From Quadrisphaera granulorum (GTDB lineage: Bacteria > Actinomycetota > Actinomycetes > Actinomycetales > Quadrisphaeraceae): DNA of 37,759 nucleotides. Numbering within the stretch: position 1 is the stretch's first letter; each line of letters opens with the position of its first letter. Below are positions 6,856-36,172 of the stretch, in pieces. Location of the stretch: NCBI RefSeq assembly GCF_003149145.1, contig NZ_QGDQ01000039.1, forward strand, positions 1 through 37,759, read 5' to 3'. Below the pieces are notes generated by a model. That model saw nothing but the letters and a program-made list of their open reading frames with translations. It searched no databases and was not told where the DNA came from. Both the position numbers and the translations under genes were made by a program.

Positions 6856-6960
6856 CGCACTTGCCGCGGAAAGTGCGCTTCCGGCGCCCCCCTTCTCGCA
6901 CTTTCCGCGGAAAGTGCGAGAAGGACCCCCTGCCTTCCCGCACTTTCCGCGGCAAGTGCG
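6856..6960 (+). repeat. Palindromic repeat cluster 1 (three copies)
   Basis: Three 22-bp palindromes lie at 6856-6877, 6897-6918 and 6939-6960, so starts are 41 and 42 bp apart. Each is the half-site CGCACTTKCCG followed by its reverse complement, with one asymmetric pair of positions. Copy 1 has K=G on the left, copy 3 is in the opposite orientation, and copy 2 is perfectly symmetric and extends to a 34-bp perfect palindrome (6891-6924). The cluster starts 26 bp after the stop of the M42 peptidase gene. The rest of the 6831-7090 gap shows no gene. Confidence 0.9.
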
Positions 6961-7077
6961 GGAGGGGATGGGGCGAGGGCGACGACGCCAGCGGGGTCGT
7001 CCGCCCACAGGGACCACGCGGGGCGTCGTCGTCCACAGGAGCGGCCAGCGGTCACCAAGCGATGCCGCTTCGGCGGC

Positions 7078-7083
7078 CACGGT
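7078..7083 (+). promoter_or_regulatory. Candidate -10 box for the DUF559-like gene
   Basis: CACGGT lies seven bases upstream of the ATG at 7091. It matches the [T/C]ANNNT spacing seen before several other starts in this window and no Shine-Dalgarno sequence is present. Confidence 0.3.
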
Positions 7084-7090
7084 GCGACGC

Positions 7091-7981
7091 ATGCCGAAGA
7101 AGCGCCCCTGGCCCGACGAGCTCCCCGACGTCTTCCTTGTCTCCGACGCGCTCGAGCAGGGGGTGCTCACATCGAGCCAGCTGCGCGACCCCCGGCTGCG
7201 CCGCCTCTTCCACGGGGTGTGCGCACCGAGGTTCGTCCCCGTCGACCACGCCTTGCGCTGCCGCGGGGCAGCCCTTGTGGTCCCGCCGTCAGCTCGCCTG
7301 ACCGGGACCTCGCTCGCGACGGTCGCCGGAGCGCCGCTCGCCGACACCTGGGACGACGTCGAGTGGGTCGTGCCACACGGCGACTGGCGCACCGGGCCGC
7401 GCGGCACGGTGCTGCGCGCGGCGTCGCGCGGGCCCCTCGGCGACACGTCGTGGCGCGGTGTGCCGACGGCGTCTCGGGAGCGGATGGGGTTCGACCTCGC
7501 GGCGCGGTGCGGCCTGGAGTTGGGCGTGGCGCGTCTCGACGTCGTCGTCAGGGCACGTCTGCTGGACCTCGACGCCTTCAAGGCGTGGCTCCTGACACGG
7601 CACGACGACGGCGTCGTCGCCGTCCGCGAGGCCGCCGACCTCTGCGACCCGCGCGCGGAGTCGATCCCCGAGTCGCGCTGCCGCGTGCGCCTCGTCCGCG
7701 CCGGGTTCGACGTGGAGCCGCAGTTCGACGTCGTCGACCGCGACGGCGTGTTCGTCGGACGCGTCGACCTGGCGCTGCTCGAGTGGAAGATCGCCATCGA
7801 GTACGAGGGGAAGTGGCGCACGCTCGTGGAGGGGCAGCTGACGGATGACCGGCTCCGCCTCGACGGTCTGCGCCACGCCGGGTGGAAGGTCGTTCACATC
7901 ACGGCGGAGCGGATGAAGGGGCGTGGCGAGGTCGAGGACGCCGTCCGTCGTGCAGTCGCCGAGCGCATCGCCGGCATCTGA
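7091..7981 (+). CDS. AbiEi-like/DUF559-like protein with endonuclease fold
   Basis: This 296-residue protein resembles a widespread actinobacterial family annotated as AbiEi-like antitoxin domain or DUF559 proteins. The N-terminal part (about 15-50, DALEQGVLTSSQLRDPRLRR) looks like a winged-helix DNA-binding domain. The C-terminal part (about 190-280) looks like a Vsr/PD-(D/E)xK restriction-endonuclease fold: ESR at 194-196, VDLA with D226, and AIEYEG with E237, followed by a strand WKVVHIT. Whether it cuts DNA is unknown. It starts at ATG 7091; the open frame extends upstream through the palindromic repeats, but that part has no family similarity. Palindrome clusters lie on both sides of it. 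No partner toxin of the AbiEii type is adjacent. Confidence 0.7.
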   Translation: MPKKRPWPDELPDVFLVSDALEQGVLTSSQLRDPRLRRLFHGVCAPRFVPVDHALRCRGAALVVPPSARLTGTSLATVAGAPLADTWDDVEWVVPHGDWRTGPRGTVLRAASRGPLGDTSWRGVPTASRERMGFDLAARCGLELGVARLDVVVRARLLDLDAFKAWLLTRHDDGVVAVREAADLCDPRAESIPESRCRVRLVRAGFDVEPQFDVVDRDGVFVGRVDLALLEWKIAIEYEGKWRTLVEGQLTDDRLRLDGLRHAGWKVVHITAERMKGRGEVEDAVRRAVAERIAGI

Positions 7982-7997
7982 ACCCCGCTGCCCTACC

Positions 7998-8101
7998 CGC
8001 ACTTGCCGCGGAAAGTGCGCCAAGACCCCCGTCCTTCTCGCACTTGCCGCGGAAAGTGCGAGAAGGACGGGGCGGGAAGCGCACTTGCCGCGGAAAGTGC
8101 G
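7998..8101 (+). repeat. Palindromic repeat cluster 2 (three copies)
   Basis: Three copies of the same 22-bp palindrome lie at 7998-8019, 8039-8060 and 8080-8101, with starts exactly 41 bp apart and all in the same orientation. The cluster fills the space between two convergent genes: it begins 17 bp after the stop of the DUF559-like gene and ends 20 bp before the stop of galK. As RNA each copy can fold into a nine-pair stem with a CGCG loop, so a role at both transcript ends is possible. Confidence 0.9.
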
Positions 8102-8120
8102 AGAAGGGGCGGGGTCGGGG

Positions 8121-9509
8121 TCAGCGGACGCGGTGCGCCCCGGGCGACGCGAGCGCCCGCAGGAACGCCGGCGCCGGGTGGCCGGCCGCCAACGCCGCCG
8201 CGCGCACCGCCGACGCCACGGCCTCCTCGGTGCCGGCGCGCACCAGCGCCACCGCCGACCCGCCGAACCCGCCGCCCGTCATCCGCGCCCCCAGTGCGCC
8301 CGCGGCCTCCGCGGCCGCACAGACCACGTCGAGCTCGGGGCAGGAGATCTCGTAGTCGTCGCGCATGGACGCGTGCGAGGCGGACAGCACCGGGCCGACA
8401 TCGTCGATGCACGCCACCGCCCCCACGCCGCTCACCCCGACGCAGCTGCCCTGCGCTGCCGCGGTGAGCAGCGACACCACCTGGTGCACGCGGGCGGTCT
8501 CGGTGATGACGTGTCGGGTGCGGCGCACCAGCTCCTCGACGCGGTCCGGGGCCTCCCTGGCCGCGACCGCCGCGGAGCGCAGCCGCTCCAGCACTGCCGA
8601 CGCACCCCCAGCGGTGCCACCGGCCTCGGTCACGGCCTCCGCCAGCAGCCTGTACCCGAGGAGCGATGCCGCCCGCTCCGAGGCCGCCCGCCGCGAGCCG
8701 TACTCGCCGTCGGCGTGCCGGTGGGGAGCGCGGGTGTCCATGACGAGCAGCGCCCGCCCGTGCTCGGCCAGGGGCAGCGGCACCTGCGTCACCGCTCCGG
8801 TGGCGCTGTCGAGCATCAGCGCGTGCTCGGCGGTGCACCGCAGGGAGGCCGCCTGGTCCATGCCGCCGGTGGAGGCGCGCGCCACCTCGTTCTCGGCGCG
8901 CACGCACGCGGCGGCGAGCTCGGCGCGGAACGCGTCGGCCGACGTCTCGCCCAGCACCGCCAGGTCCGCCACCGCCAGCGCGACCACGCACTCCAGCGCC
9001 GCCGAGCTCGACAGACCCGCGCCCAGCGGCACCGTGGACACGACGGCGGCATCGACACCGCCCACCGCATAGCCCGCCTGCGCCAGCGCCCACAGCACGC
9101 CCGCCACGTAGGCGGCCCACCCCTCGGGCGCGCCGGGGCCGACGTCGGACAGGTGCCCTTGCCACACCGATGCTTCGCCGCCCAGGTCAGCGGACGATGC
9201 AGCGGAGACCACGCGCACCACCCCGTCGTGCCGCGCCCGCACGGCCGCCACGGTGCTGTGCGGCAGCGCCAGCGGCAGCACCGGCCCGCCGTTGTAGTCG
9301 AGGTGCTCGCCGATGAGGTTCACGCGGCCCGGCGCCGACCAGACGCCGTCGGCCTGGCCCTCCCAGTGCCCGGCGAACAGCGCCACCGCGGCGTCGGCCG
9401 CGGCCGACGGAGCGGCGGCCGTCAGCCAGATCGGAGCCCCCTGCGGGGCAGCAGCACCAGCGGCGAACTCGCCGCCAGCGAACCCGGCGCCCGACGTCGT
9501 CGTCGTCAC
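8121..9509 (-). CDS. galK: Galactokinase
   Basis: This 462-residue GHMP kinase phosphorylates galactose at C1 in the Leloir pathway. The galactokinase signature GRVNLIGEHLDYNGG is at residues 61-75, the ATP-binding motif PLGAGLSSSAALE follows, GGMDQ holds the likely catalytic Asp, and the third GHMP motif MTGGGFGG is near the C-terminus. It is longer than most bacterial galactokinases (about 380-400 residues). About 27 extra Ala/Gly-rich residues precede the signature, so a later start is possible. I chose GTG 9509 because it overlaps the galT stop as GTGA, an arrangement repeated in this genome. It is co-transcribed with galT; no galE is present in the window. Confidence 0.92.
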   Translation of the reverse strand: MTTTTSGAGFAGGEFAAGAAAPQGAPIWLTAAAPSAAADAAVALFAGHWEGQADGVWSAPGRVNLIGEHLDYNGGPVLPLALPHSTVAAVRARHDGVVRVVSAASSADLGGEASVWQGHLSDVGPGAPEGWAAYVAGVLWALAQAGYAVGGVDAAVVSTVPLGAGLSSSAALECVVALAVADLAVLGETSADAFRAELAAACVRAENEVARASTGGMDQAASLRCTAEHALMLDSATGAVTQVPLPLAEHGRALLVMDTRAPHRHADGEYGSRRAASERAASLLGYRLLAEAVTEAGGTAGGASAVLERLRSAAVAAREAPDRVEELVRRTRHVITETARVHQVVSLLTAAAQGSCVGVSGVGAVACIDDVGPVLSASHASMRDDYEISCPELDVVCAAAEAAGALGARMTGGGFGGSAVALVRAGTEEAVASAVRAAALAAGHPAPAFLRALASPGAHRVR

Positions 9510-10645
9510 GAAGCCACCTCCCGCAGCCGGTCGGCGATGCGCTCCGGCGTCGTGTCGTTGATCCACGCGCCGACCCCGGACTCGGAGCCGGCGAGGTACT
9601 TGAGCTTGCCGGGCTGGCGTAGCACGGAGAACGCCTGCAGGTGCAGCCGGCCAAGCTCACGCTCACGACCCAGCGGCGCCTGGTGCCAGCCAGCGATGTA
9701 CGGCAGCGCGTCCACGCCGTCGAAGTAGCGGTCCAGCCGCCCCAGCATCTCCGAGTAGACGACCGCCAGCTCGTCCCGCTCCCCGGCGTCGAGTGCGGCC
9801 AGGTCGGGCACGTCGCGGTGCGGTGCCAGGTGGAACTCCACGGGCCAGCGGGCGGCGGCCGGCACGTACGCCGTCCAGTGCTCCCCGCGCAGCACCACGC
9901 GGGTGCCTGCGCGTTGCTCGGCGGCCAGCACGTCGGCCAGCAGCGACGTCCCGTGAGCGCGCTGGTGTCGCGACGCCTGCACGATCAGCTGCGACGTCCG
10001 CGGCGTGGGCTCCGGGTAGGCGTAGATCTGCCCGTGGGGGTGCTGCAGCGTCACCCCGATCTCCTTGCCGCGGTTCTCGAAGACGAACACCTCGCCCGAG
10101 CCGGCCACCCCGGACAGCGACGACAGCTCCGCCGTCCGGTCGGCCCACGCCTCCACCACGGTCCGCACGCGGGAGACGGGCAGGGAGGCGAAGGTGGCGG
10201 AGTGGTCGGCGGTGAAGCAGACCACCTCGCACTGCCCGACCGCGGCGCGCACGGGCCACAGCGGCTCGCCGTCCACCAGCCCCGCGGGCTCCTCAGCGAG
10301 CGATGTTCCCGCCCCCGCGTAGGAGGGGAACCGGTTGGAGAACACGACGACGTCGTAGTCGGCCTCGGGCACCTCGCCGGGCTCGCGCCCCGGGCGCGCC
10401 GGGCACAGCGGGCACAGGTCGGCGGGTGGCATGAAGGTGCGGTCCTGCCGGTGGGCGGCGTGTGCGACCCACTCGCCCGTGAGCACGTCCCACCGCATGG
10501 TCGACGTCGTGGCGACCGACGGCAGGTCGCGGGTGTCGACGGCGGAGCGGGTGCTCGCGCCGGACAGCCACGGCTCGGTGTCGTCGTAGTAGTGGATCGG
10601 CCGCCCGTCGGCCATCTGCCGGTCGGTGCGACGCACCTGCGCCAT
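9506..10645 (-). CDS. galT: Galactose-1-phosphate uridylyltransferase
   Basis: This 379-residue enzyme transfers UMP from UDP-glucose to galactose-1-phosphate. The active-site motif HPHGQ is at residues 202-206, where the second His carries the UMP. A zinc-binding CPLC pair (C78, C81) and FENRGKEIG support the GalT class I fold. The ATG at 10645 has a clear AGGAGG about seven bases upstream. The open frame continues upstream to 11251, but that part runs antisense to the regulator gene and is not credible. Its stop overlaps the galK start. A DeoR-type regulator gene lies just upstream on the same strand, with a direct repeat in the gap that could be its operator. Confidence 0.94.
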   Translation of the reverse strand: MAQVRRTDRQMADGRPIHYYDDTEPWLSGASTRSAVDTRDLPSVATTSTMRWDVLTGEWVAHAAHRQDRTFMPPADLCPLCPARPGREPGEVPEADYDVVVFSNRFPSYAGAGTSLAEEPAGLVDGEPLWPVRAAVGQCEVVCFTADHSATFASLPVSRVRTVVEAWADRTAELSSLSGVAGSGEVFVFENRGKEIGVTLQHPHGQIYAYPEPTPRTSQLIVQASRHQRAHGTSLLADVLAAEQRAGTRVVLRGEHWTAYVPAAARWPVEFHLAPHRDVPDLAALDAGERDELAVVYSEMLGRLDRYFDGVDALPYIAGWHQAPLGRERELGRLHLQAFSVLRQPGKLKYLAGSESGVGAWINDTTPERIADRLREVAS

Positions 10646-10694
10646 CGCGGTCCTCCTGTGGTGGGTGACCGGCTGCGCGCCGGCCCGCCAGCGA

Positions 10695-10738
10695 ACGCTA
10701 CCTGCGCTCGACTCTGAGCGGAAGTGTTCGGAAGTGTG
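10695..10738 (-). promoter_or_regulatory. Candidate galTK promoter with overlapping direct-repeat operator
   Basis: On the minus strand a TAGCGT -10 (10695-10700) is preceded after 17 bases by a weak TTCCGC -35 (10718-10723). Two adjacent 10-bp direct repeats, CGGAAGTGTT and CGGAAGTGTG on the plus strand (10719-10738), cover the -35. They are one helical turn apart, so a repressor such as the neighbouring DeoR protein could bind there. The expected transcript has a leader of about 45 bases with the galT Shine-Dalgarno sequence. The rest of the 10646-10800 gap holds nothing else I recognise. Confidence 0.42.
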
Positions 10739-10800
10739 AGTTTCTGTTGGTTCAATCGAGAAGGGTGAGAAGAGCAAGAAGGGCGATGAGGACGACGACG

Positions 10801-11649
10801 TCAGCCCGTCGCCGCATCGCGCTCCGCGATCACGAGCCGCCCCACCTTGGAGGCCAGCACCTCGCGTGCGGCGTGCGGCAGCCCGTCGTCCGTGACGAGC
10901 ACGTCGACGGCGTCCAGCGGCGCGATGCTCGCCAGACCCACCACGTGCCATTTGGAGGAGTCGCACACGACGACGACGTGCCGCGCTGACGCCACGAGCG
11001 CCCGGTTGGTCTCGCCCTCGACGAGGTTCGGTGTGGTCAGCCCCGCCTCGAGGTCGACACCATGGACCCCGAGCAGCAGGGTGTCGACGTGCAGCGACCG
11101 GATCGCCGCCACGGCCACCGGCCCGACCAGCGCGTCCGAGGGGGTGCGTTCGCCGCCGGTGAGCACCACCGAACCGCCCGCCGCCCCTCCGGCCCAACTC
11201 CCGGCCGCACCGCCGGCAGGCGCCGAGTCGGGCCAGTCCGGCGCGCTCCACGCCTCGTGCAGCACCTGCTCCACGCGCAGCGAGTTGGTCACGACGGTGA
11301 GGCCCGGCACGTCGACCAGGGCGGAAGCGACGGCGTGGGTCGTCGTCCCCGCTGAGATCGCCACCGAGGAGCCCGGGGCGACCAGCTCGGCGGCGGCGCG
11401 CGCGATCGCCTCCTTCTGGGGGAGGGCCAGCGCCGACTTCACGGTGAAGCCCGGCTCCTCCGCGCGCGCCGACAGCGCCGTGGCGCCGCCGTGTACCCGG
11501 GCGACGAGGCCCTGCCCGGCGAGGATGGTGATGTCGCGCCGGACGGTCATCTCCGAGACGCCGAGCGCGGTGACGAGGTCGCTCACGCGCGCTCCGCCGT
11601 GCGCGCGCACCTCTTCCAGGATCCGCTCCTGGCGCTGCCTGGCGAGCAC
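10801..11649 (-). CDS. DeoR/GlpR family transcriptional regulator
   Basis: This 282-residue regulator has the DeoR layout. Its N-terminal winged helix-turn-helix (about 1-57) contains RQERILEEVRAHG and VSDLVTALGVSEMTVRRDI, the standard DeoR signature. The C-terminal DeoRC sugar-phosphate sensor (about 75-275) includes SAGTTTHAVA, VVTNSL, VLTGGE and VDTLLLGVHGVD. An Ala/Gly-rich insertion near 140-160 is unusual. It lies 155 bases upstream of galT on the same strand and probably controls galTK by responding to a phosphorylated sugar; the ligand is inferred. The GTG start at 11649 follows a TAACCT hexamer by six bases, so the transcript is probably leaderless. Confidence 0.88.
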   Translation of the reverse strand: MLARQRQERILEEVRAHGGARVSDLVTALGVSEMTVRRDITILAGQGLVARVHGGATALSARAEEPGFTVKSALALPQKEAIARAAAELVAPGSSVAISAGTTTHAVASALVDVPGLTVVTNSLRVEQVLHEAWSAPDWPDSAPAGGAAGSWAGGAAGGSVVLTGGERTPSDALVGPVAVAAIRSLHVDTLLLGVHGVDLEAGLTTPNLVEGETNRALVASARHVVVVCDSSKWHVVGLASIAPLDAVDVLVTDDGLPHAAREVLASKVGRLVIAERDAATG

Positions 11650-11655
11650 CCCCGC

Positions 11656-11661
11656 AGGTTA
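11656..11661 (-). promoter_or_regulatory. Candidate -10 box of the DeoR regulator gene
   Basis: On the minus strand TAACCT is followed by GCGGGG and then the GTG start at 11649. The six-base gap fits a leaderless transcript. Confidence 0.4.
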
Positions 11662-11699
11662 CGGCCGGTCACCGGGCCCTGCAGCCTGCGTGGCGGTGA

Positions 11700-12761
<1,062 letters not shown>

Positions 12762-12773
12762 GGACCACCCCGG

Positions 12774-13391
12774 GTGCCCATGACGACCACGGCGAGGACG
12801 ACGACGGCGGGCGGCGCCGTGGCTCCCGGGGGCGCCCAGGCGCTGACCGGCGTCTTCAGCGTGGTCCCCGGGGCCGGTGAGGTCCTCATCGGTGTGGCCA
12901 TCGCGGTGCCGCAGCCGTGGGCGGGGGAGCTGGAGGCGTGGCGCCGCAGCTTCGGCGATCCGCTGGGCGCCACCGTGCCGGCGCACGTGACGCTCGTTCC
13001 GCCGACCGCGGTGCGCCGTGCCGACCTCCCCGCCGTGCGCGAGCACCTCGCTCGGGCCACCGCGGCCAGCGGGCCGTTCCGCGTCGAGCTCGACGGCGCC
13101 GACACCTTCCGCCCGGTCACCCCGGTGGTCTACGTGCGCCTGGCCGCCGGCGCGGGGGAGTGCGCGGACCTGGAGGGGCGGGTGCGCTCCGGGGTGCTCG
13201 GCACGCAGCGCCGGTTCCCGTTCCACCCGCACGTCACGGTGGCGCAGCAGCTCGAGGACGAGGTGCTCGACACGGCGTGCACGCAGCTCGCCGGGTACGA
13301 CGCCGCTTTCGACGTGTCCGAGGTCGACCTGTACGAGCTCGGCACCGACGGCCGGTGGCGCTCTGTGCAGACCTTCCGCCTGGGCGGCTGA
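12774..13391 (+). CDS. 2'-5' RNA ligase family protein (2H phosphoesterase)
   Basis: This 205-residue protein belongs to the 2H phosphoesterase superfamily (LigT/2'-5' RNA ligase-like). The two diagnostic HxT motifs are HVT at 71-73 (HVTLVPP) and HVT at 153-155 (HPHVTVAQ), which together form the active site. Family members act on cyclic phosphodiesters or 2'-5' linkages in RNA or nucleotides; the substrate here is unknown. The first 25 residues are rich in Thr, Ala and Gly and probably disordered. GTG 12774 is preceded by GAGGA at nine bases; ATG 12780 is an alternative start. It follows trpS by 12 bases, a pairing common in Actinobacteria. Confidence 0.85.
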   Translation: MPMTTTARTTTAGGAVAPGGAQALTGVFSVVPGAGEVLIGVAIAVPQPWAGELEAWRRSFGDPLGATVPAHVTLVPPTAVRRADLPAVREHLARATAASGPFRVELDGADTFRPVTPVVYVRLAAGAGECADLEGRVRSGVLGTQRRFPFHPHVTVAQQLEDEVLDTACTQLAGYDAAFDVSEVDLYELGTDGRWRSVQTFRLGG

Positions 13392-13489
13392 CGCCGAGGG
13401 AGCCGGTCGGTCGGCGTCGGGCTGGCGTCCGGCAGGTGCCTGTCTGACGTCCGGCTGACATCCGACGCGCGGTGTGCGCCTCGCTGCGC

Positions 13490-13495
13490 CACGAT
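13490..13495 (+). promoter_or_regulatory. Candidate -10 box for a leaderless leader ORF
   Basis: CACGAT is followed after seven bases by GTG at 13503, the same layout as before other starts in the window. Upstream in the same gap a 12-bp arm CTGACGTCCGGC (13444-13455) has its exact inverse at 13527-13538. Confidence 0.3.
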
Positions 13496-13502
13496 CGACC
13501 CC

Positions 13503-13580
13503 GTGATCGACGAGCGCCGGCCCCCCGCCGGACGTCAGCCGCACCTCACCGGGCAGGGCGGTGCCCCGTGGGTGCGGTGA
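13503..13580 (+). CDS. Possible 25-codon leader peptide coupled to yihY
   Basis: A GTG at 13503 opens a 25-codon frame that ends in TGA at 13578-13580. Its last base is the A of the ATG of the YihY gene, an ATGA overlap. The peptide is rich in Arg, Pro and Gly and ends APWVR; it has no recognisable domain. A CACGAT hexamer seven bases upstream would make it leaderless. The overlap and promoter spacing suggest a translated leader that couples ribosomes into yihY, which itself has no clear Shine-Dalgarno sequence. This could be chance in a short GC-rich gap. Confidence 0.35.
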   Translation: MIDERRPPAGRQPHLTGQGGAPWVR

Positions 13581-14692: not shown

Positions 14693-14695
14693 GGT
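14690..14695 (+). promoter_or_regulatory. Candidate -10 box for the GCS2/ATP-grasp gene
   Basis: TAGGGT overlaps the TAG stop of the YihY gene and lies six bases before the GTG at 14702, which fits a leaderless promoter. Confidence 0.4.
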
Positions 14696-14701
14696 TCGAC
14701 A

Positions 14702-19191: not shown

Positions 19192-19198
19192 CCCCCGC

Positions 19199-19311: not shown

Positions 19312-19318
19312 GACCCCC

Positions 19319-22199: not shown

Positions 22200-22262
22200 C
22201 GCACTTTCCGCGGCAGGTGCGCCAAGGAGCCCCTCCTTCCCGCACTTGCCGCGGAAAGTGCG
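22200..22262 (+). repeat. Palindromic repeat cluster 3 (two copies, opposed)
   Basis: Two 22-bp palindromes of the same family lie at 22200-22221 and 22241-22262, 41 bp apart and in opposite orientation. The first has one A-to-G change in its right arm. The pair sits between the 3' end of sdhB and the start of the beta-propeller gene, both on the minus strand, with a separate hairpin between it and sdhB. Confidence 0.88.
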
Positions 22263-22289: not shown

Positions 22290-22327
22290 AGGGCCGCGCC
22301 CCTCGACGGATCGAGAGGCGCGGCCCT
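22290..22327 (-). terminator. Hairpin terminator of the sdhCDAB operon
   Basis: An 11-bp perfect stem (AGGGCCGCGCC with its complement) extends inward with one mismatch to a four-base loop. It lies 22 bases downstream of the sdhB stop on the minus strand, where the sdh operon should end. Confidence 0.65.
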
Positions 22328-23105: not shown

Positions 23106-23110
23106 GGGTG

Positions 23111-24877: not shown

Positions 24878-24911
24878 GGGGTGTCCTCCTCGAGCGAAGC
24901 TCAGCGGGCTG

Positions 24912-25388: not shown

Positions 25389-25401
25389 CGGGATGCCCCT
25401 C

Positions 25402-25809: not shown

Positions 25810-26046
25810 GGAGTGCGCCTCCCTGTATCCCGTGAGGTGCGGGGTCTCGGTGGAGTGCGGGACCCTGCGTGAGTGGAGCGGCGCCCTGCTCGACCTGACC
25901 TGCGTGCAGACCCATGTGCCGGCACGTGGCCGACCACGAGCTGAGATCCGACCGGGACAGCGGCGTCGCTGGTGAGCGTAGCGCCGTGCGGGTGCTGCGC
26001 CCCCCGGACCGCGCGCCGAGGTGACCTACGCCTCACGCCGTTGTGC

Positions 26047-26052
26047 CAGGGT
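26047..26052 (+). promoter_or_regulatory. Candidate -10 box of manC
   Basis: CAGGGT lies six bases before the GTG at 26059. The same bases also resemble a Shine-Dalgarno sequence (AGGGTGG), so both readings are open. Confidence 0.25.
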
Positions 26053-26058
26053 GGCGCC

Positions 26059-27222: not shown

Positions 27223-27240
27223 GGCGAGCATCATCCTGCG

Positions 27241-28461: not shown

Positions 28462-28750
28462 TGCCGTCTGCACCCGCCTGGCACGCCGCCTGCGGTCTCC
28501 GTGGCCGGACCATCACCGTCCGCAGTGCACTTCCGCAGGTGAATGACCGTGGTGAGGTGCTCGGGTCACGGAAAGGTTGCGATCGCGACACGGCCCTCGT
28601 GCCTCACGGGGAAGGCCGCCTAGCCTCGCCACGACGTCGCCCGAGGGCGCGGCCAGCGCCCCTGCCCGCCCTCAGCGGACTCCGCGACCGCGGGGTCCCG
28701 GGCCGGACCACATCGCGCGGCGCCCTGCGGCTGCGGGAGGGACTCAACTC
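28462..28750 (+). promoter_or_regulatory. Intergenic region with probable promoter of the nucleoside transport operon
   Basis: This 289-base gap contains no credible gene. TAGCCT at 28621-28626 is a plausible -10 and would give a 5' leader of about 115-120 bases before the BMP gene. No good -35 is visible. GCGATCGC, an 8-bp palindrome, lies upstream at about 28579-28586. The leader is GC-rich and can fold, but I recognise no riboswitch class. Confidence 0.3.
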
Positions 28751-29845
28751 GTGAAGAAGATTCTCGGCAGCGTCGCGGCCGCTGGCGCCCTGGCGCTCCT
28801 GGCGGCCTGTGGCCAGGCCCCGGCTACCTCGGGCGAGGGTGCCTCCACCACGGCGAGCGCGTCAGGATCCGGCGCGTCCTTCAAGGGCTGCATCGTCTCC
28901 GACGGCGGCGGCTTCAAGGACCAGTCGTTCAACCAGGCCGGCCTGGAGGGTCTGGAGAAGGCCAAGAGCGAGGACGGCATCCAGATCGCCTCCGTCGAGT
29001 CGAAGTCGGATGCCGACTACGCGCCGAACATCGCCACCCTCGTCTCGCAGAACTGCAACCTCGTCGTCGCGTCCGGCTTCCTCCTCGCCGATGCGCTCGG
29101 CCAGCAGGCCGACGCCAACAAGGACACCCAGTTCGCCATCGTCGACTCCACCGTCACCCCGGCCCGCGACAACGTGAAGCCGCTGCTGTTCGACACCGCG
29201 CAGGCCGCCTACCTGGCCGGGTACGTCGCGGCGGGCATGTCCAAGACCGGCACGGTCGCCACCTACGGCGGCATCAAGATCCCGTCCGTGACGATCTTCA
29301 TGGACGGCTTCAGCGACGGCGTCGCGAAGTACAACCAGGACAAGGGCAAGGCCGTCAAGGTGCTCGGCTGGGACAAGGCCACCCAGGACGGCTCGTTCAC
29401 GGGTGACTTCACCGACGCGACCAAGGGCCGCAACACCAGCCAGAACTTCATCGACCAGGGCGCCGACATCATCCTCCCGGTCGCCGGTCCGGTCGGCTCC
29501 GGCACGCTCGCCGCGGCGAAGGCCGCGAACGACGGCGGCAAGGACGTGAAGGTCATCTGGGTCGACTCCGACGGCTACAACACCCAGCCCGACTACCGCG
29601 ACATCATCCTCACCACGGTGGTGAAGGAGATCGGGACGGCGGTCCAGGCGGCCGTGAAGTCCGAGCTCGACGGCACCTTCTCCTCCCAGCCGTACGTCGG
29701 CACCCTCGACAACGGCGGCGTCTCGCTCGCGCCGTTCCACGACCTCGACTCCCAGGTTCCTCAGGAGCTCAAGACCGAGGTGACCGCTCTCCAGGAGCAG
29801 ATCGCCAGCGGCGCCATCAAGGTCGAGTCGCAGTCGACCCCGTGA
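28751..29845 (+). CDS. BMP family ABC transporter substrate-binding lipoprotein
   Basis: This 364-residue lipoprotein is a basic-membrane-protein (BMP/PnrA-type) solute receptor that captures nucleosides at the cell surface. The signal peptide MKKILGSVAAAGALALL ends in the lipobox LAAC with C20, followed by a Ser/Thr/Gly/Ala linker. Family motifs include CIVSDGGGFKDQSFNQAGLEG, VVASGFLLADALG, AAYLAGYVAAGMSKTG and VIWVDSDGYNTQPDY. GTG 28751 follows a GGAGG by about ten bases. The genes after it encode the matching ATPase and two permeases plus nucleoside salvage enzymes, which supports a nucleoside ligand (compare the nup system of Bacillus). Confidence 0.92.
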   Translation: MKKILGSVAAAGALALLAACGQAPATSGEGASTTASASGSGASFKGCIVSDGGGFKDQSFNQAGLEGLEKAKSEDGIQIASVESKSDADYAPNIATLVSQNCNLVVASGFLLADALGQQADANKDTQFAIVDSTVTPARDNVKPLLFDTAQAAYLAGYVAAGMSKTGTVATYGGIKIPSVTIFMDGFSDGVAKYNQDKGKAVKVLGWDKATQDGSFTGDFTDATKGRNTSQNFIDQGADIILPVAGPVGSGTLAAAKAANDGGKDVKVIWVDSDGYNTQPDYRDIILTTVVKEIGTAVQAAVKSELDGTFSSQPYVGTLDNGGVSLAPFHDLDSQVPQELKTEVTALQEQIASGAIKVESQSTP

Positions 29846-29859
29846 CCTGACCTGGTCGA

Positions 29860-29900
29860 GCGATCGGGCCCCTCGGTAGCGTGCCGAGGGGCCCGATCGC
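29860..29900 (+). terminator. Strong hairpin between the BMP gene and the ABC ATPase gene
   Basis: A 17-bp perfect stem (left arm GCGATCGGGCCCCTCGG) with a seven-base loop starts 15 bases after the BMP stop. It is probably a partial terminator or an mRNA-stabilising element that makes the binding protein more abundant than the membrane components. Confidence 0.6.
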
Positions 29901-29905
29901 GTCCA

Positions 29906-29947
29906 GGCGGTCATCAGCTGGCGGTCATCAGCTGGCAGTCATCAGCT
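29906..29947 (+). repeat. Three tandem copies of a 14-bp repeat
   Basis: GGCGGTCATCAGCT occurs at 29906-29919 and 29920-29933, with a one-base variant (GGCAGTCATCAGCT) at 29934-29947. The array sits between the hairpin and the GGAAGGAGG ribosome site of the ABC ATPase gene. Its role is unknown. Confidence 0.85.
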
Positions 29948-29972
29948 GCAGTTCTCGGAAGGAGGTGCGGGC

Positions 29973-31573
<1,601 letters not shown>

Positions 31574-31577
<4 letters not shown>

Positions 31578-31675
31578 ACCTGCTGACCACGATGACGGTG
31601 ACCACGATGACGGTGACCACGATCACTGTGACCACGATCACTGTGACGACGACGACGGAGAGGTCCGAGCGGTGA
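31574..31675 (+). CDS. 33-codon repeat-coded mini-ORF bridging ATPase and permease genes
   Basis: A GTG at 31574 overlaps the ABC ATPase stop as GTGA and opens a 33-codon frame. That frame ends in TGA at 31673-31675, which overlaps the permease GTG (31672) as a second GTGA. Most of the frame is five 15-bp tandem repeats, coding a Thr-rich peptide with repeating units of the type TMTVT and TITVT, then a charged tail ERSER. Because 15 is a multiple of three, changes in copy number would keep the frame. The peptide has no known domain. The likely role is to carry ribosomes across the gap from the ATPase to the permease. Whether it is translated is unproven. Confidence 0.5.
31584..31658 (+). repeat. 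Five tandem copies of a 15-bp repeat
   Basis: TGACCACGATGACGG occurs at 31584-31598 and 31599-31613, TGACCACGATCACTG at 31614-31628 and 31629-31643, and a more diverged TGACGACGACGACGG at 31644-31658. The last copy runs into the GGAGAGG ribosome site of the permease gene. Confidence 0.9.
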
Positions 31676-32877
31676 AGTCCTGGCTGGAGGACGTGCGGCG
31701 CAGCAGCTGGCTGGTGTCGCTGCTCGCCGTCGTCGTCGCCTTCGTGCTCGGTGGGGTGCTCATCGCTCTCACCGACCCCGACACCCAGGCGGCGATGGGC
31801 TACTTCTTCGCGCGCCCCACCGATGCGGTCTCGGCGGGCTGGCGCGCCGCCACCGAGGCCTACGGCGCGATGCTCCGCGGAGCGATCTATGACCCGCAGG
31901 CCGCCACCGCGACGCGGCAGATCAGGCCCATCACCGAGACGCTGACCGTGGCCACCCCGCTCATCGCCGCGGGGCTCGGGGTGGCGCTCGCCTTCCGTGT
32001 GGGCCTGTTCAACATCGGTGCTCAGGGCCAGCTCATCCTCGGGGTGATCCTCGCCGGCTGGGTGGGCTTCCGCCTGCACCTGCCGGTGGGCATCCACCTG
32101 CTGGTCGCGGTGCTCGCGGCGGTGATCGGCGGTGCGCTGTGGGGAGGGCTGGTCGGCGTGCTGCGCGCCCGCACCGGCGCCCCCGAGGTGATCACCACGA
32201 TCATGCTCAACTACGTCGCGCTGTACCTGCTCGCCTACCTGCTCACCACCGGTGCCTTCCAGCGCGAGGGCGCCTCCAACCCCATCAGCCCGCCCATCGA
32301 CGACTCGGCGGCCTTCCCGCTGCTGCTCGGTGACAGCTTCCGCCTGCACCTGGGCTTCCTCGTGGTGCTCGTCGCTGCGGCCTTCGTCTGGTGGCTGCTG
32401 GAGCGCAGCACGGTCGGTTTCCGCTGGCGCGCCGTCGGCGCCAACCCCGCCGCGGCGCGCACCGCGGGGATGAGCGTCTCCGCGGCCTACGTCGGCGTCA
32501 TGGTGGCCGCCGGTGCCCTCGCCGGGCTGGCCGGAGCGGCTCAGCTGCTGGGGACGGAGAAGTCGCTGACCGGCGGCATCGCCGGCTCGATCGGGCCGGA
32601 CGCCATCACGGTGGCGCTGCTCGGGCGCTCACGCCCGCTCGGGGTGGTGCTGGCGGGCCTGCTGTTCGGTGCGCTGCGCGCCGGGGGCGTGCTCATGCAG
32701 GCCCAGACCGGGACGCCCATCGACATCGTCCTCGTGGTCCAGTCGGTCATCGTGCTGCTCATCGCCGCGCCGCCGTTGGTGCGGTCGATCTTCAGGTTGG
32801 AGCCGCGCAAGCGCCGCAGCACCGACTCTGCCGATGGTGCCGCCCCGACCGCCGAGCGCCAGGGAGCCGCCGCGTGA
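31672..32877 (+). CDS. Nucleoside ABC transporter permease (first subunit)
   Basis: This 401-residue permease belongs to the BPD_transp_2 group (NupP/YufP-like). A cytoplasmic N-terminus (MKSWLEDVRRSSW) leads into multiple membrane helices, including LVSLLAVVVAFVLGGVLIAL and LIAAGLGVALAFRVGLFNIG. FRVGLFNIGAQGQLILG is the family hallmark, followed by APEVITTIMLNYVALYLL. The C-terminal tail is hydrophilic. GTG 31672 is preceded by GGAGAGG and overlaps the stop of the repeat-coded mini-ORF. The stop overlaps the next permease start as GTGA. It forms the channel with the second permease. Confidence 0.92.
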   Translation: MKSWLEDVRRSSWLVSLLAVVVAFVLGGVLIALTDPDTQAAMGYFFARPTDAVSAGWRAATEAYGAMLRGAIYDPQAATATRQIRPITETLTVATPLIAAGLGVALAFRVGLFNIGAQGQLILGVILAGWVGFRLHLPVGIHLLVAVLAAVIGGALWGGLVGVLRARTGAPEVITTIMLNYVALYLLAYLLTTGAFQREGASNPISPPIDDSAAFPLLLGDSFRLHLGFLVVLVAAAFVWWLLERSTVGFRWRAVGANPAAARTAGMSVSAAYVGVMVAAGALAGLAGAAQLLGTEKSLTGGIAGSIGPDAITVALLGRSRPLGVVLAGLLFGALRAGGVLMQAQTGTPIDIVLVVQSVIVLLIAAPPLVRSIFRLEPRKRRSTDSADGAAPTAERQGAAA

Positions 32878-34157
32878 GCACCTCAGCCCCCGCCCAGCCG
32901 ACGGCGCCCGCTGCGGCCGCCGCCCCCGTCGAGCGCAGCAGCGCTCGCCCCGTGTGGGTCATGGCCGCCTTCGCGGCGCTCGCGCTCCTGCTCTTCGGCG
33001 GCTTCGGCCCCGCCGGCAGCTCCACCTTCGCGCTGTCCGGCGGGGGAGCGGCCGTCTCGCTGCCCGACCTGCCGCTGCCGGGCCGCCCGTCGGGCTGGGT
33101 CATCGGCTTGGCCTGCGTGGCGCTCGTCGTCGTCGTCGAACTCGCCCGCAGGGCGGGTCGGCCGGCGCCGCGGTGGGCAGTGCCGCTGTTCGCTGCGCTG
33201 TGGGTGGTCGGGTTCCTCGTGTGGGTGGTGGCCGGCCAGCGGATCAGCCTGGTCGGTCTGCTCGGCGGTGGGCTCGTGCTCGCCGTGCCGCTCGTGTTCG
33301 GGGCGCTGTCCGGCGTGGTGTCCGAGCGCGCCGGCGTGGTGAACATCGCCATCGAAGGGCAGCTGCTCGCCGGGGCTTTCCTGTCCGCCGTCGTCGCCAG
33401 CGCCACCGACAGCGCCTGGCTGGGTCTGCTCGCCGCGCCGCTCGCCGGAGCGCTCGTCGGGCTGCTGCTCGCGATCTTCGCGATCCGCTACCTGGTCGAC
33501 CAGATCATCGTGGGTGTCGTGCTCAACGTGCTCGTGCTGGGGCTGACCAACTACCTCTTCAGCACCGTGCTCTCGGCGGACCGGTCCCTCAACTCCCCGC
33601 CCGGTCTCGGCCCCGTCGCGATCCCCCTGCTGTCGAACATTCCCGTGCTCGGGCCGGTGCTGTTCAACCAGTCGGTGATCGTCTACCTGATGTACGTGGC
33701 CGTGGCCGTCGTGCACGTCGCGCTGTTCCGCACCCGCTGGGGTCTGCGGGTGCGCGCCGTCGGTGAGCACCCGCGCGCGGCGGACACGGTCGGTATCAAC
33801 GTCAACCGCACCCGGTTCGTCAACGTGCTCATCGCCGGGGCGCTGGCGGGTCTCGGCGGCGCGATGCTCACGCTCGGTGCCAGCCTCGCCTTCGGGCAGA
33901 ACATGAGCGCCGGCAAGGGCTACATCGCCCTCGCGGCGATGATCTTCGGGCGGTACTCGCCGAAGGGGGCGCTCGCCGCGGCCCTGCTGTTCGGCCTGGC
34001 CACCAACCTGCAGGACATCCTCAGCTCCATCTCCACGCCGGTGCCGAGCCAGTTCCTGCTCATGGCGCCCTACCTGGCGACGGTGCTCGCCGTCGCCGGT
34101 CTCGTCGGCAGGGTCCGCGCGCCCGCCGCCGACGGTCAGCCCTACGTCAAGCAGTGA
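32874..34157 (+). CDS. Nucleoside ABC transporter permease (second subunit)
   Basis: This 427-residue permease is the partner subunit (NupQ/YufQ-like). An Ala/Pro-rich N-terminus is followed by two or three extra hydrophobic segments (VWVMAAFAALALLLFGGFG, WVIGLACVALVVVVELA, VPLFAALWVVGFLVWVV) before the conserved core. The core hallmark is VVSERAGVVNIAIEGQLLAGAF, and later GKGYIALAAMIFGRYSPKGA. The N-terminal part makes it longer than many family members (about 300-330). GTG 32874 overlaps the stop of the first permease as GTGA. The cytidine deaminase gene starts 11 bases after its stop. Confidence 0.92.
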   Translation: MSTSAPAQPTAPAAAAAPVERSSARPVWVMAAFAALALLLFGGFGPAGSSTFALSGGGAAVSLPDLPLPGRPSGWVIGLACVALVVVVELARRAGRPAPRWAVPLFAALWVVGFLVWVVAGQRISLVGLLGGGLVLAVPLVFGALSGVVSERAGVVNIAIEGQLLAGAFLSAVVASATDSAWLGLLAAPLAGALVGLLLAIFAIRYLVDQIIVGVVLNVLVLGLTNYLFSTVLSADRSLNSPPGLGPVAIPLLSNIPVLGPVLFNQSVIVYLMYVAVAVVHVALFRTRWGLRVRAVGEHPRAADTVGINVNRTRFVNVLIAGALAGLGGAMLTLGASLAFGQNMSAGKGYIALAAMIFGRYSPKGALAAALLFGLATNLQDILSSISTPVPSQFLLMAPYLATVLAVAGLVGRVRAPAADGQPYVKQ

Positions 34158-34168
34158 GGAGCACCCCT

Positions 34169-34573
34169 GTGGGAGATCAGGACGTCGACTGGGACGGGCT
34201 GCTGGTGGCCGCCCGCGACGTGCAGCAGCGGGCCTACGCGCCGTACTCGCGGTTCAGGGTGGGGGCGGCGGCGCTCGTCGACGACGGGCGCGTGGTCACC
34301 GGGTGCAACGTGGAGAACGCCGGTTACGGCGTGACGCTGTGCGCGGAGTGCGGGCTGGTGTCGTCGCTGGTGGCCGGTGGTGGGGGCCGGCTGGTGGCCT
34401 TCACCTGTGTGGGGGGCGACGACGCCCGGCTGATCATGCCGTGCGGCCGCTGCCGTCAGCTGCTGTTCGAGCACGGGGGCCGCTCGCTGCTCGTCTCGAC
34501 GCCCGAGGGCGTGCTGACGATGGCCGAGGTGCTGCCGCAGGGCTTCGGCCCCGAGGAGCTCGACCGCGGCTGA
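34169..34573 (+). CDS. cdd: Cytidine deaminase
   Basis: This 134-residue enzyme converts cytidine and deoxycytidine to uridine and deoxyuridine. The zinc and catalytic residues are visible: C58-A-E60 in VTLCAECG and PCGRC with C92 and C95. GCNVENAGYG binds the ribose. The length is normal for the small homotetrameric class. I chose GTG 34169 because AGGAG lies seven bases upstream; GTG 34154, overlapping the permease stop as GTGA, is an alternative that adds five residues. It processes nucleosides brought in by the upstream transporter. Confidence 0.93.
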   Translation: MGDQDVDWDGLLVAARDVQQRAYAPYSRFRVGAAALVDDGRVVTGCNVENAGYGVTLCAECGLVSSLVAGGGGRLVAFTCVGGDDARLIMPCGRCRQLLFEHGGRSLLVSTPEGVLTMAEVLPQGFGPEELDRG

Positions 34574-34585
34574 CCGCCGTCGTCG

Positions 34586-34702
34586 CCTCTCCGAACCGCA
34601 GCCGGGCGACCGAACGCTGTTCCTGAGCCCTACAAACCGCAGCCGGGCGCCTAGTTGCGGTTCGGAGGGGGGCTCGAACCGCGACGAGGCGCTCGGCTGC
34701 GG
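34586..34702 (+). repeat. Second intergenic inverted/direct repeat region
   Basis: AACCGCAGCCGGGCG occurs at 34594-34608 and 34635-34649, and a diverged copy starts at 34677, so spacing is 41 and 42 bp. CTCCGAACCGCA (34589-34600) has its exact inverse at 34656-34667, and the third copy is followed by a near-inverse ending at 34702. The region fills most of the gap between cdd and deoA. The sequence is unrelated to the CGCACTT palindrome family. Confidence 0.65.
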
Positions 34703-34721
34703 AAGGGCTGCGCGACAGTGG

Positions 34722-34727
34722 CAGGGT
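34722..34727 (+). promoter_or_regulatory. Candidate -10 box of deoA
   Basis: CAGGGT lies seven bases before GTG 34735, again without a Shine-Dalgarno sequence. An alternative GTG at 34726 would overlap this hexamer. Confidence 0.3.
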
Positions 34728-34734
34728 GAGCGGC

Positions 34735-36093
34735 GTGAGCCAGCCCGCCTCCGCGCCCGCACAGAAGCCCGCCCCGACGTCTGCGCAGAAGACCGAACCT
34801 CACGACGCCGTCGAGGTGATCGCCGCCAAGCGCGACCGCCACGCGCTCACGGACTCGCAGATCGACTGGGTGGTCGACGCGTTCACCCGCGGCGCGGTGG
34901 CCGACGAGCAGATGAGCGCGCTGGCCATGGCGATCCTGCTCAACGGCATGGACCGCCGCGAGATCTCCCGCTGGACGTCGGCGATGATCGCCAGCGGCGA
35001 GCGGCTCGACTTCTCCGGGCTGAGCCGCCCCACGGCTGACAAGCACTCCACCGGCGGCGTCGGTGACAAGATCACGCTGCCGTTGGCCCCGCTCGTCGCG
35101 GCGTGCGGGGTCGCCGTCCCGCAGCTGTCGGGCCGCGGGCTCGGTCACACCGGCGGCACCCTCGACAAGCTCGAGGCGATCCCCGGATGGCGTGCCGCGC
35201 TGTCCAACGACGAGATGCTGGCCCAGCTGGAGGACGTCGGGGCGGTGGTCTGCGCCGCCGGCTCCGGGCTCGCACCCGCCGACAAGAAGCTCTACGCGCT
35301 GCGCGACGTCACCGGCACCGTCGAGGCGATCCCGCTCATCGCCAGCTCCATCATGAGCAAGAAGATCGCCGAGGGCACCGGCGCGCTCGTGCTCGACGTC
35401 AAGGTCGGCACCGGCGCGTTCATGAAGAACCGGGACGACGCCGAGGAGCTCGCCCGGACCATGGTCGACCTCGGCACCGACGCGGGGGTGCGCACGGTCG
35501 CACTGCTCACGGACATGTCCACGCCGCTGGGCCTGACCGCCGGGAACGCCCTGGAGGTCCGCGAGTCCGTCGAGGTGCTGGCCGGGGGCGGGCCGCGCGA
35601 CGTTGTCGACCTCACCCTGGCCCTGGCGCGGGAGATGCTGGCCGCTGCGGGCCGCGGCGACGTCGACCCGGCCGACGCCCTCGCCGACGGCCGCGCCATG
35701 GACGTGTGGCGCCGCATGATCGCTGCGCAGGGCGGAGACCCCGCCGCCGCGCTGCCAGTCGCGAAGCACGCGCACGAGGTGCGCGCCGGCGCCGACGGCG
35801 TGCTCACTCGGTTCGACGCCATGGCCGTGGGCCTGGCCGCGTGGCGGCTCGGCGCGGGACGGGCCCGCGCGGGGGAGTCCGTGCAGGCCGGGGCGGGGGT
35901 GGAGCTCCGCGCCAAGCCCGGTGACGTGGTGCGCTCGAGCGACGTGCTCGCCGTGCTCCACACCGACACCCCGGAGCGCTTCGACCGCGCTCTGGCCGCT
36001 CTCGACGGCGGGTGGGACGTCAGCCCCGCTGGCACGGCGGCGTCGCCGGCTGGGGTGGGCGCCGTCGACGTCGTCCTCGGTCGTATCGGCTGA
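34735..36093 (+). CDS. deoA: Thymidine phosphorylase
   Basis: This protein of about 452 residues cleaves thymidine, and in many bacteria other pyrimidine nucleosides, with phosphate. DKHSTGGVGDK (about 102-112) is the phosphate-binding loop, and SGRGLGHTGGTLDKLE (from about 132) is the family signature. SIMSKKIAEGTGALVLDVKVGTGAFM is equally diagnostic. The first 25 residues (rich in Ala, Pro and Gln) extend beyond the E. coli enzyme. The start is chosen by the leaderless promoter pattern; GTG 34726 is in frame and possible. It sits between cdd and add in the salvage cluster. Confidence 0.95.
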   Translation: MSQPASAPAQKPAPTSAQKTEPHDAVEVIAAKRDRHALTDSQIDWVVDAFTRGAVADEQMSALAMAILLNGMDRREISRWTSAMIASGERLDFSGLSRPTADKHSTGGVGDKITLPLAPLVAACGVAVPQLSGRGLGHTGGTLDKLEAIPGWRAALSNDEMLAQLEDVGAVVCAAGSGLAPADKKLYALRDVTGTVEAIPLIASSIMSKKIAEGTGALVLDVKVGTGAFMKNRDDAEELARTMVDLGTDAGVRTVALLTDMSTPLGLTAGNALEVRESVEVLAGGGPRDVVDLTLALAREMLAAAGRGDVDPADALADGRAMDVWRRMIAAQGGDPAAALPVAKHAHEVRAGADGVLTRFDAMAVGLAAWRLGAGRARAGESVQAGAGVELRAKPGDVVRSSDVLAVLHTDTPERFDRALAALDGGWDVSPAGTAASPAGVGAVDVVLGRIG

Positions 36094-36109
36094 CCACCCT
36101 CCTCTTTCC

Positions 36110-36172
36110 CGCACTTTCCGCGGCAAGTGCGGCTCCCGGACAGTCGTTGGCGCACTTGCCGCGGAAAGTGCG
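36110..36172 (+). repeat. Palindromic repeat cluster 4 (two copies, opposed)
   Basis: Two 22-bp palindromes lie at 36110-36131 and 36151-36172, 41 bp apart and in opposite orientation as in cluster 3. The cluster begins 17 bp after the deoA stop and ends 15 bp before the promoter hexamer of the small acidic gene. Confidence 0.9.

What the first reader, a model, noticed from the sequence alone, without database searches (positions are those of the whole stretch)
6856..36172. Ten copies of a 22-bp palindrome in four intergenic clusters with fixed 41-42 bp phasing
The half-site CGCACTTKCCG plus its reverse complement occurs at 6856, 6897, 6939, 7998, 8039, 8080, 22200, 22241, 36110 and 36151. 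Within every cluster neighbouring starts are 41 or 42 bp apart, close to four DNA turns, so all sites would face the same side of the helix. The 19-20 bp between copies varies in sequence while its length is kept. That argues for protein binding or a fixed architecture, not simple terminators. Three of the four clusters begin 17-26 bp after a stop codon. It could be a REP-like element, a nucleoid-protein array or a 3'-end processing signal.
Basis: seen in the sequence. Interest (0 to 1): 0.82.

Follow-up and report, generated by a model that had tools for sequence, protein, structure and literature searches.

The report
Phased palindromes with their own nuclease
The ten palindromes belong to a family scattered through this soil bacterium's genome at fixed 41-42 base steps, and they appear to be paired with a nearby nuclease-like gene that carries the same palindromes on both sides, a partnership that recurs with different palindromes across many actinobacteria.

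Summary
In detail: ten 22-bp palindromes (nine exact, one with a single change), neighbours 41 or 42 bp apart. They are genome-wide (104 with up to 2 mismatches; control 0). In the 46 clusters fetched (87 of 105 sites) all 41 neighbour distances are 41 or 42.

The first two clusters flank one gene (7091-7981) whose product joins an AbiEi-like DNA-binding part to a Vsr/EDxHD-type nuclease fold. All 13 genomes of the family have homologues. In 21 of 21 aligned loci a palindromic unit is phased in one flank and present in the other; its sequence follows the protein clade. Outside the family 36 of 66 loci pass the same test (controls 0 of 62, 3 of 150). Dispersed copies are most abundant where a matching gene exists; Saccharopolyspora oryzae has 361 of its own type. 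One genome (G011) has 22 inexact copies of a type for which no matching gene was found.

This works like REP/RAYT, but the genome has no Y1 transposase match and the repeats have no GTAG/CGTC tag, so it is not filed there. I propose an independent class: a locus-bound nuclease maintaining and spreading its own phased palindromes. The partnership is well supported; binding, cutting and spread are inferred.

The parts
6856..6960 (.). Upstream array of the nuclease gene: three 22-bp palindromes (6856-6877, 6897-6918, 6939-6960), spacings 41 and 42
   Evidence: orthologous array of three in G001
7091..7981 (+). Gene for a 296-aa AbiEi-like DNA-binding + Vsr/EDxHD-type (MTES_1575/DUF559-like) nuclease-fold protein; only match in this genome at E <= 1e-10
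7998..8101 (.). Downstream array: three palindromes (7998-8019, 8039-8060, 8080-8101), spacings 41 and 41, inverted relative to the upstream array
   Evidence: orthologous array of three in G001
22200..22262 (.). Dispersed pair (22200-22221 with one change, 22241-22262), spacing 41, between two minus-strand genes
   Evidence: G001 has three copies at C1:283416
36110..36172 (.). Dispersed pair (36110-36131, 36151-36172), spacing 41, 16 bp after a stop codon
   Evidence: no own-type palindrome at the orthologous position in G001

Best explanation
A two-part system. A locus-bound gene (window 7091-7981) encodes a protein with an N-terminal AbiEi-like DNA-binding region and a C-terminal Vsr/EDxHD-type nuclease fold. 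Its partners are short palindromes that flank the gene on both sides in inverted arrays and are dispersed through intergenic DNA in arrays with a 41-42 bp step. Proposed working: the protein binds the palindromes through its AbiEi-like part; four helical turns put neighbouring sites on one face so bound protomers can touch; the nuclease domain nicks or cuts at or near palindromes; repair from another array adds or removes whole 41-42 bp units and occasionally seeds a new intergenic site. The gene stays few-copy while the palindromes spread, as with RAYT/REP, but with an unrelated enzyme. Arrays persist mostly just after genes, where hairpin-forming DNA is tolerated or useful as a two-way terminator. 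SHOWN: layout, phasing, dispersal, protein-palindrome co-variation, species-specific presence, copy-number differences in whole units. INFERRED: binding, cutting, repair-driven spread, terminator side effect.
For: Layout: 21 of 21 aligned family loci and 36 of 66 loci outside it have a 22-nt palindromic unit repeated at 39-44 bp in one flank and present in the other; controls 3 of 150 and 0 of 62. Of the family matches left out of that count, 6 of 7 weaker homologues and the outer flanks of the interrupted G003 gene also pass. Exact inverted matches of 14 nt or more join the two flanks in 38 of 66 outside loci against 3 of 60 controls. Co-variation: three paralogue clades in two genomes (G009, G012) each keep their own unit (protein identity 0.94-0.96, unit distance 0-0.05), while paralogues in one genome are 0.32-0.59 apart (random mean 0.52); Mantel r -0.59, 0 of 5000 permutations as low. 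Beside one and the same neighbour gene, G000/G001/G002 carry CGCACTT-type and G003/G005 CGCARCC-type palindromes, and the dispersed copies switch: exact own type 72, 38, 15, 0, 0; CGCARCC pairs 6, 3, 4, 83, 24. G004, whose only match belongs to another clade (0.89 identical to the second NP160 paralogue), has 15 own-type copies with up to 3 mismatches and none exact. S. oryzae has 361 copies of its type and P. agglutinans 37, each with 0 in the other two genomes tested. Turnover: of 18 own clusters with an orthologous position in the G001 stretches, 13 keep own-type palindromes (up to 6 mismatches, one of them a single decayed copy) and 5 do not; unit numbers differ (2 vs 4, 1 vs 2, 2 vs 3). 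Protein: pLDDT 91.7; C-terminal match to the EDxHD homing endonuclease domain 3r3p (TM by target 0.80, E 0.023) and a whole-length match to Rv2827c (E 1.3e-3, TM 0.39), an AbiEi-family protein that binds tandem 23-bp inverted repeats of its own promoter (PMC7319586, abstract and passages).
Against: No binding, cleavage or movement has been measured. The histidine aligned with the Vsr 'WH' is Arg in 4 of 21 proteins including the window's, and E236 is Leu or Phe in two and Asp in one, so nuclease activity may be altered or lost in some. No clean insertion with a target duplication was seen. 30 of 66 outside loci fail the strict layout test. Fold matches are modest: no Foldseek hit reaches E 0.001, and the top-ranked hit is a Tetrahymena mitoribosome chain at 17 A rmsd. 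Step lengths outside the family include 27, 33 and 38 bp, so four turns is not universal. G011 has 22 copies, none exact, of the third type although one search found only one homologue there, with another unit. G003 holds many arrays although its gene is interrupted. Some same-genome paralogues have units somewhat alike (0.32).
Confidence: 0.7

Rival explanations
1. The arrays are host-selected bidirectional terminators or insulators placed between convergent genes; the flanked protein is a coincidental or secondary user.
For: 34 of 46 clusters lie within 40 bp after a stop and 22 of 45 are between convergent genes against 60 of 292 gaps of the same loci (p 2e-5); divergent gaps hold 2 of 45. 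At L066 the related genome G001 has an ordinary GC-rich hairpin where G000 has an array.
Against: Does not explain the same unit on both sides of one gene family in 21 of 21 family loci, the match of unit to protein clade, the switch of sequence between congeneric species, or the fixed step with a freely varying spacer. Flank-arm complementarity is not above shuffling (0.412 vs 0.418).
Confidence: 0.15
2. The protein is a genome-wide DNA-organising or regulatory factor (its nuclease fold being inactive or silent) and the phased palindromes are its operator array; spread is by ordinary recombination.
For: The closest whole-length fold in bacteria, Rv2827c/AbiEi, is a repressor of tandem inverted repeats; the upstream array lies about 131-235 bp before the start codon; the fixed 41-42 bp step suits a protein array; the 'WH' histidine is Arg in the window's protein.
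Against: E193 and D225 are invariant in all 21 aligned proteins; copy number differs widely between genomes and presence differs between sister species, odd for an essential architectural site set.
Confidence: 0.12
3. An IS- or RAYT-derived REP family mobilised by a Y1 (HUH) transposase.
For: Same overall pattern: palindromes flanking a single-copy gene in inverted orientation and dispersed in gene gaps (PMC2817692, PMC3116915, passages).
Against: PF01797 (Y1_Tnp) has no match in this genome while it rings in 5 of 14 control genomes; the flanked gene matches no HUH family; GTAG within 6 nt of a palindrome end in 1 of 87 copies and CGTC in 0.
Confidence: 0.02

Closest known systems
REP / REPIN elements and RAYT (TnpA-REP) transposases
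   Same: Short palindromes, high copy, intergenic and often after genes, often in pairs; same palindromes flank a low-copy gene in inverted orientation; protein and repeat co-vary
   Different: Enzyme is a Vsr/EDxHD-fold protein with an AbiEi-like part, not HUH Y1; no GTAG or CGTC tag; strict 41-42 bp step with a hypervariable spacer; found in actinobacteria, a word that occurs 0 times in the text of the GTAG/CGTC survey (PMC3733652, passages)
AbiEi / Rv2827c type IV antitoxins and their tandem inverted-repeat operators
   Same: Modest fold match; such proteins bind tandem 23-bp inverted repeats before their own gene (PMC7319586, passages)
   Different: No AbiEii toxin partner was looked for; here a nuclease fold is fused and sites are dispersed genome-wide and on both sides of the gene
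EDxHD homing endonucleases (I-Bth0305I) and Vsr mismatch endonuclease
   Same: C-terminal domain fold (3r3p TM by target 0.80; profile E 0.003)
   Different: Homing enzymes cut the empty allele and copy their own gene (recalled); here short palindromes, not the gene, are what is dispersed
MTES_1575 REase / DUF559 domain families
   Same: All 21 proteins match PF18741 and 16 match PF04480 at E <= 0.01
   Different: The window's protein is below the curated cut-off (20.2 vs 38.2 bits); no listed paper links these families to repeats (searches; open-licence library only)

Membership tests
REP/RAYT | Y1_Tnp (PF01797) transposase encoded in the genome and flanked by the repeats | tested here: not met
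   no match in the own genome; rings in 5 of 14 control genomes
REP/RAYT | GTAG (or CGTC) tag at one end of the palindrome | tested here: not met
   reading towards the palindrome, GTAG within 6 nt in 1 of 87 copies, GTGG in 9, CGTC in 0; reading outward GTAG 1, CGTC 0
REP/RAYT | Cognate gene flanked by repeats in inverted orientation | tested here: met
   83-nt inverted arms in the window; exact inverted match of 14 nt or more in 7 of 12 family and 38 of 66 outside loci; one search tests presence on both sides, not orientation
REP/RAYT | Single-copy enzyme gene, many dispersed repeats | tested here: met
   one match in G000, 1-5 in the others, and the aligned ones within a genome differ from each other; 104 and 361 repeats
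REP/RAYT | Repeats mobilised by the enzyme | not testable with these tools
   only indirect: presence/absence and unit-wise copy changes
AbiE type IV toxin-antitoxin | AbiEi-like fold | tested here: inconclusive
   1zel (Rv2827c) E 1.3e-3, probability 1.00, but TM only 0.39 and rmsd 6.8
AbiE type IV toxin-antitoxin | Adjacent DUF1814/AbiEii toxin gene | not tested
   neighbouring genes were not scanned with protein families
Vsr / EDxHD nuclease | Vsr-like fold of the C-terminal domain | tested here: met
Vsr / EDxHD nuclease | Catalytic residues kept | tested here: inconclusive
   E193 and D225 invariant in 21 of 21; the 'WH' His is Arg in 4 of 21 including the window; E236 is Leu/Phe in 2 and Asp in 1
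Homing endonuclease | Empty target allele recognised and enzyme gene copied into it | not tested
   the gene lies beside the same neighbour in G000, G001, G002, G003 and G005, in the opposite orientation in the last two

The most novel reading that the evidence does not exclude
Actinobacteria carry an independent class of REP-like system: a locus-bound AbiEi-Vsr fusion nuclease that recognises, amplifies in 41-42 bp steps and spreads its own phased palindromes, with each protein clade having evolved a new palindrome. It is a convergent counterpart of RAYT/REP built on a different enzyme fold, and a ready-made set of dozens of protein-DNA specificity pairs.
Probability: 0.55. Interest if true: 0.92.

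Novelty: categorically new. Interest (0 to 1): 0.86.

Why it matters
In the papers I read, REP elements are tied to one enzyme class, the HUH RAYTs, and one REP superfamily (CGTC) has no known enzyme (PMC3733652, passages). A second, unrelated enzyme-repeat partnership would show that dispersed palindromes with a tame cognate enzyme have arisen more than once, and would explain many intergenic hairpins of actinobacteria. The natural swaps (beside the same neighbour gene, about 60% identical proteins, entirely different palindromes) make recognition directly testable. The fixed step with a free spacer is an unusual geometric constraint that can be probed with synthetic DNA.

Tried and rejected
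Y1/RAYT origin: tested and rejected. Known RNA family: no Rfam match at gathering thresholds. Phage origin: no exact match in IMG/VR. CRISPR-like reading (repeat 22, spacer 19-20): considered because of the fixed-length variable spacers, set aside because arrays have one to three units here and sit after genes; spacer targets were not searched. Extended hairpin with compensating flank arms: tested and not supported (0.412 vs 0.418 shuffled). Strict REPIN-type inverted pairs: by T/G asymmetry 16 of 33 pairs are mirror-oriented, 7 and 6 same-way, 4 other. Target-site duplication: not determinable from the diverged junctions.

A wrong search: one search used N10 instead of N12 between the half-sites; it found 0 in the own genome and matches in 10 of 396 genomes, so it serves only as a rough chance level. 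In one search the automatic unit for the window's locus came out off register (distances 0.52-0.53 to its orthologues), which weakens the correlation. In one search the 13-point threshold was chosen, and the family control windows are high (17 of 88). The test was also written after the pattern had been seen; its controls are the safeguard. Outside the family 68 loci were in hand; 2 were dropped for short flanks.

Own-genome clusters: loci were fetched around the places listed; the listing was cut, so the 46 clusters (87 sites) are most but not all of the 105 sites. At least one decayed array (G000:C3:105618) was not fetched. The baseline of gene gaps comes from the same loci, by a home-made gene caller.

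Literature: ten searches of an open-licence library only. Passages were seen in PMC3710099, PMC7319586, PMC2817692, PMC3116915 and PMC3733652; all other papers as listings only.
Full report
What is there. The ten palindromes of the finding are real: 23 half-site matches against 3.06 expected. The site is CGCACTTKCCGCGGMAAGTGCG. The window is contig C39 of a 4.88-Mb genome, which holds 104 sites with up to 2 mismatches, 105 with up to 3 and 72 exact; the reversed-pattern control gives 0 each time.

Phasing. The 46 clusters (87 sites) that I fetched are 9 singles, 33 pairs and 4 triples. All 41 neighbour distances are 41 (31 times) or 42 (10 times). In 1.196 Mb of the related genome G001, 20 clusters (up to 4 mismatches) again show only 41 or 42.

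Position. By a home-made codon-score gene caller, 22 of 45 classified clusters lie between convergent genes against 60 of 292 gaps in the same loci (p 2e-5), 2 of 45 are divergent (69 of 292, p 0.001), and one cluster fell inside a called gene. 34 of 46 lie within 40 bp after a stop codon.

The clusters at 6856 and 7998 are inverted copies of each other (83-nt arms, 88% complementary) enclosing one gene, 7091-7981. Its product matches PF18741 (MTES_1575 REase) only weakly (E 6.5e-4, below the curated cut-off). Of 21 aligned homologues, all match PF18741 (best 7.8e-10) and 16 match DUF559; 7 match the Vsr model at E <= 0.01. The AlphaFold2 model has pLDDT 91.7. Foldseek pairs its C-terminal part with the EDxHD homing endonuclease domain 3r3p (TM by target 0.80, E 0.023) and the whole with Rv2827c (1zel, E 1.3e-3, TM 0.39); no hit reaches E 0.001, and the first-ranked one is a mitoribosome chain with 17 A rmsd. 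Rv2827c is an AbiEi-family antitoxin shown to bind four tandem 23-bp inverted repeats in its own promoter (PMC7319586, abstract and passages).

The partnership recurs in the family. All 13 family genomes carry homologues at E <= 1e-10. A degenerate pair pattern GCAC-N12-GTGC finds arrays in 12 of these 13 but in only 17 of the other 284 genomes of the order. The 13th, G005, has another type: CGCARCC...GGYTGCG pairs number 24 in G005 and 83 in G003, but 6, 3 and 4 in G000, G001 and G002, and 0 in G004 and the other seven. In each of 21 aligned gene loci a 22-nt palindromic unit is repeated in one flank at 39-44 bp and present in the other; the same test gives 3 of 150 random places in G001. Of the remaining matches, 6 of 7 weaker homologues pass, and so do the outer flanks of the interrupted G003 gene; one match had no locus and was not tested.

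The palindrome follows the protein. In G009 and G012 (Pseudokineococcus) three paralogue clades each have their own unit, shared across the two genomes (protein identity 0.94-0.96, unit distance 0-0.05), while paralogues inside one genome are 0.32-0.59 apart (random mean 0.52). Mantel r is -0.59, 0 of 5000 permutations as low. The gene lies beside the same neighbour (window 8098-10500) in G000, G001, G002, G003 and G005, but in G003 and G005 it is turned round relative to that neighbour and the other side differs. Beside it G000, G001 and G002 have CGCACTT-type palindromes and G003 and G005 CGCARCC-type (by eye), and dispersed copies switch with the gene. G004, whose only match belongs to another clade, has 15 own-type copies with up to 3 mismatches and none exact, as expected of relics. 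A third type (GGGCGAGTCGTCGCCTGTTCGCCC, up to 3 mismatches, both strands summed) has 40 and 55 matches in G009 and G012, which carry its gene, and 0 in G000, G006 and G008; but G011 has 22, none exact, without such a gene found.

Beyond the family. The genome-collection scan kept the best 80 of 346 loci, by their titles all from actinobacteria as far as I know the names: Amycolatopsis, Pseudonocardia, Saccharopolyspora, Prescottella, Blastococcus and others. Of 66 outside loci with long enough flanks, 36 pass the 39-44 bp layout test and 40 pass at 25-50 bp, against 0 of 62 displaced controls. 38 of 66 have an exact inverted match of 14 nt or more between flanks, against 3 of 60. Lags in single flanks gather at 41-43 (22 of 43 flank hits), with 6 at 33 and 3 at 27. 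Saccharopolyspora oryzae has 361 copies of CAGTTTCAATTGAAACTG, many of the listed ones paired at 41 bp. Prescottella agglutinans has 37 exact copies of AAGTGCGCAAAACGCG. Each pattern has 0 in the other two genomes tested.

Turnover. In one search, 18 of 46 own clusters have an orthologous position in the G001 stretches. 13 keep own-type palindromes (up to 6 mismatches allowed), several with a different number of units (2 vs 4, 1 vs 2, 2 vs 3, and 2 vs 1 decayed); 5 have none. At one of these five G001 has an array of the other type, at another an ordinary hairpin. The window's array at 22200 was missed by that test but has three units in G001. In 7 arrays of equal number palindromes are 328 of 352 identical and spacers 107 of 171; one array of unequal number was skipped. 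So sequence is kept in the palindrome, chiefly length in the spacer. The window itself is rich in clusters (4 where about 0.37 are expected), but without the two flanking ones the excess is weak (P 0.054).

How it probably works. Shown: layout, phasing, dispersal, co-variation, turnover in whole units. Inferred from fold and layout: binding by the AbiEi-like part, contact between neighbours four turns apart, cutting by the Vsr-like domain, repair-driven gain of units and new sites. A low-copy gene with many dispersed partners is what RAYT/REP systems look like (PMC2817692, PMC3116915, passages). But the Y1 transposase is absent, the GTAG tag is near 1 of 87 copies and CGTC near none, and the survey of tagged REPs lists other phyla and never uses the word Actinobacteria (PMC3733652, passages). 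It works like REP/RAYT and is not a member.

Results against. The conserved 'WH' histidine is Arg in the window's protein and three others; E236 is replaced in three proteins. 30 of 66 outside loci fail the strict layout test. Flank arms show no compensating complementarity. Family control windows are high (17 of 88). G003's gene is interrupted although its arrays are many, and G011 holds one type without a found partner. No binding, cleavage or movement was observed, and the literature check covers open-licence papers only.

Noticed in passing
L117 and L132 (G003:C2:564218-566159): The nuclease-gene homologue of Quadrisphaera sp. INWT6 is interrupted by about 1 kb of other DNA, although its palindrome type is abundant (83 pairs).
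   Followed up: partly
window 7002-10500 against L143 and L145: Beside the same neighbour gene the nuclease gene has opposite orientations in G000 and in G003/G005; the inverted flanking arrays could have mediated a flip.
   Followed up: partly
G000:C1:179042, C3:29361, C5:171984, C8:150035, C17:31520, C22:74984: The own genome carries six pairs of the other (CGCARCC) palindrome type although only one homologue of the nuclease gene was found at E <= 1e-10; possibly relics of a lost partner.
   Followed up: no
L092, L093, L099, L106 (other families of the order): Phased GCAC-N12-GTGC pairs also occur in G034, G050, G219 and G189, at 40-43 bp; whether a nuclease homologue accompanies them was not checked.
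   Followed up: no
window 22290-22327: An ordinary 17-bp hairpin (94% complementary, 4-nt loop) sits about 28 bp after the palindrome pair at 22200-22262.
   Followed up: no
L142, L144: The record titled Streptomyces sp. NP160 has the contig lengths and gene positions of G002, which the search tool places in the same genus as the window; the strain name looks misassigned.
   Followed up: no
G397 (Prescottella agglutinans): Opposite-strand neighbours are 47-48 bp apart while same-strand neighbours are 41 bp apart.
   Followed up: no
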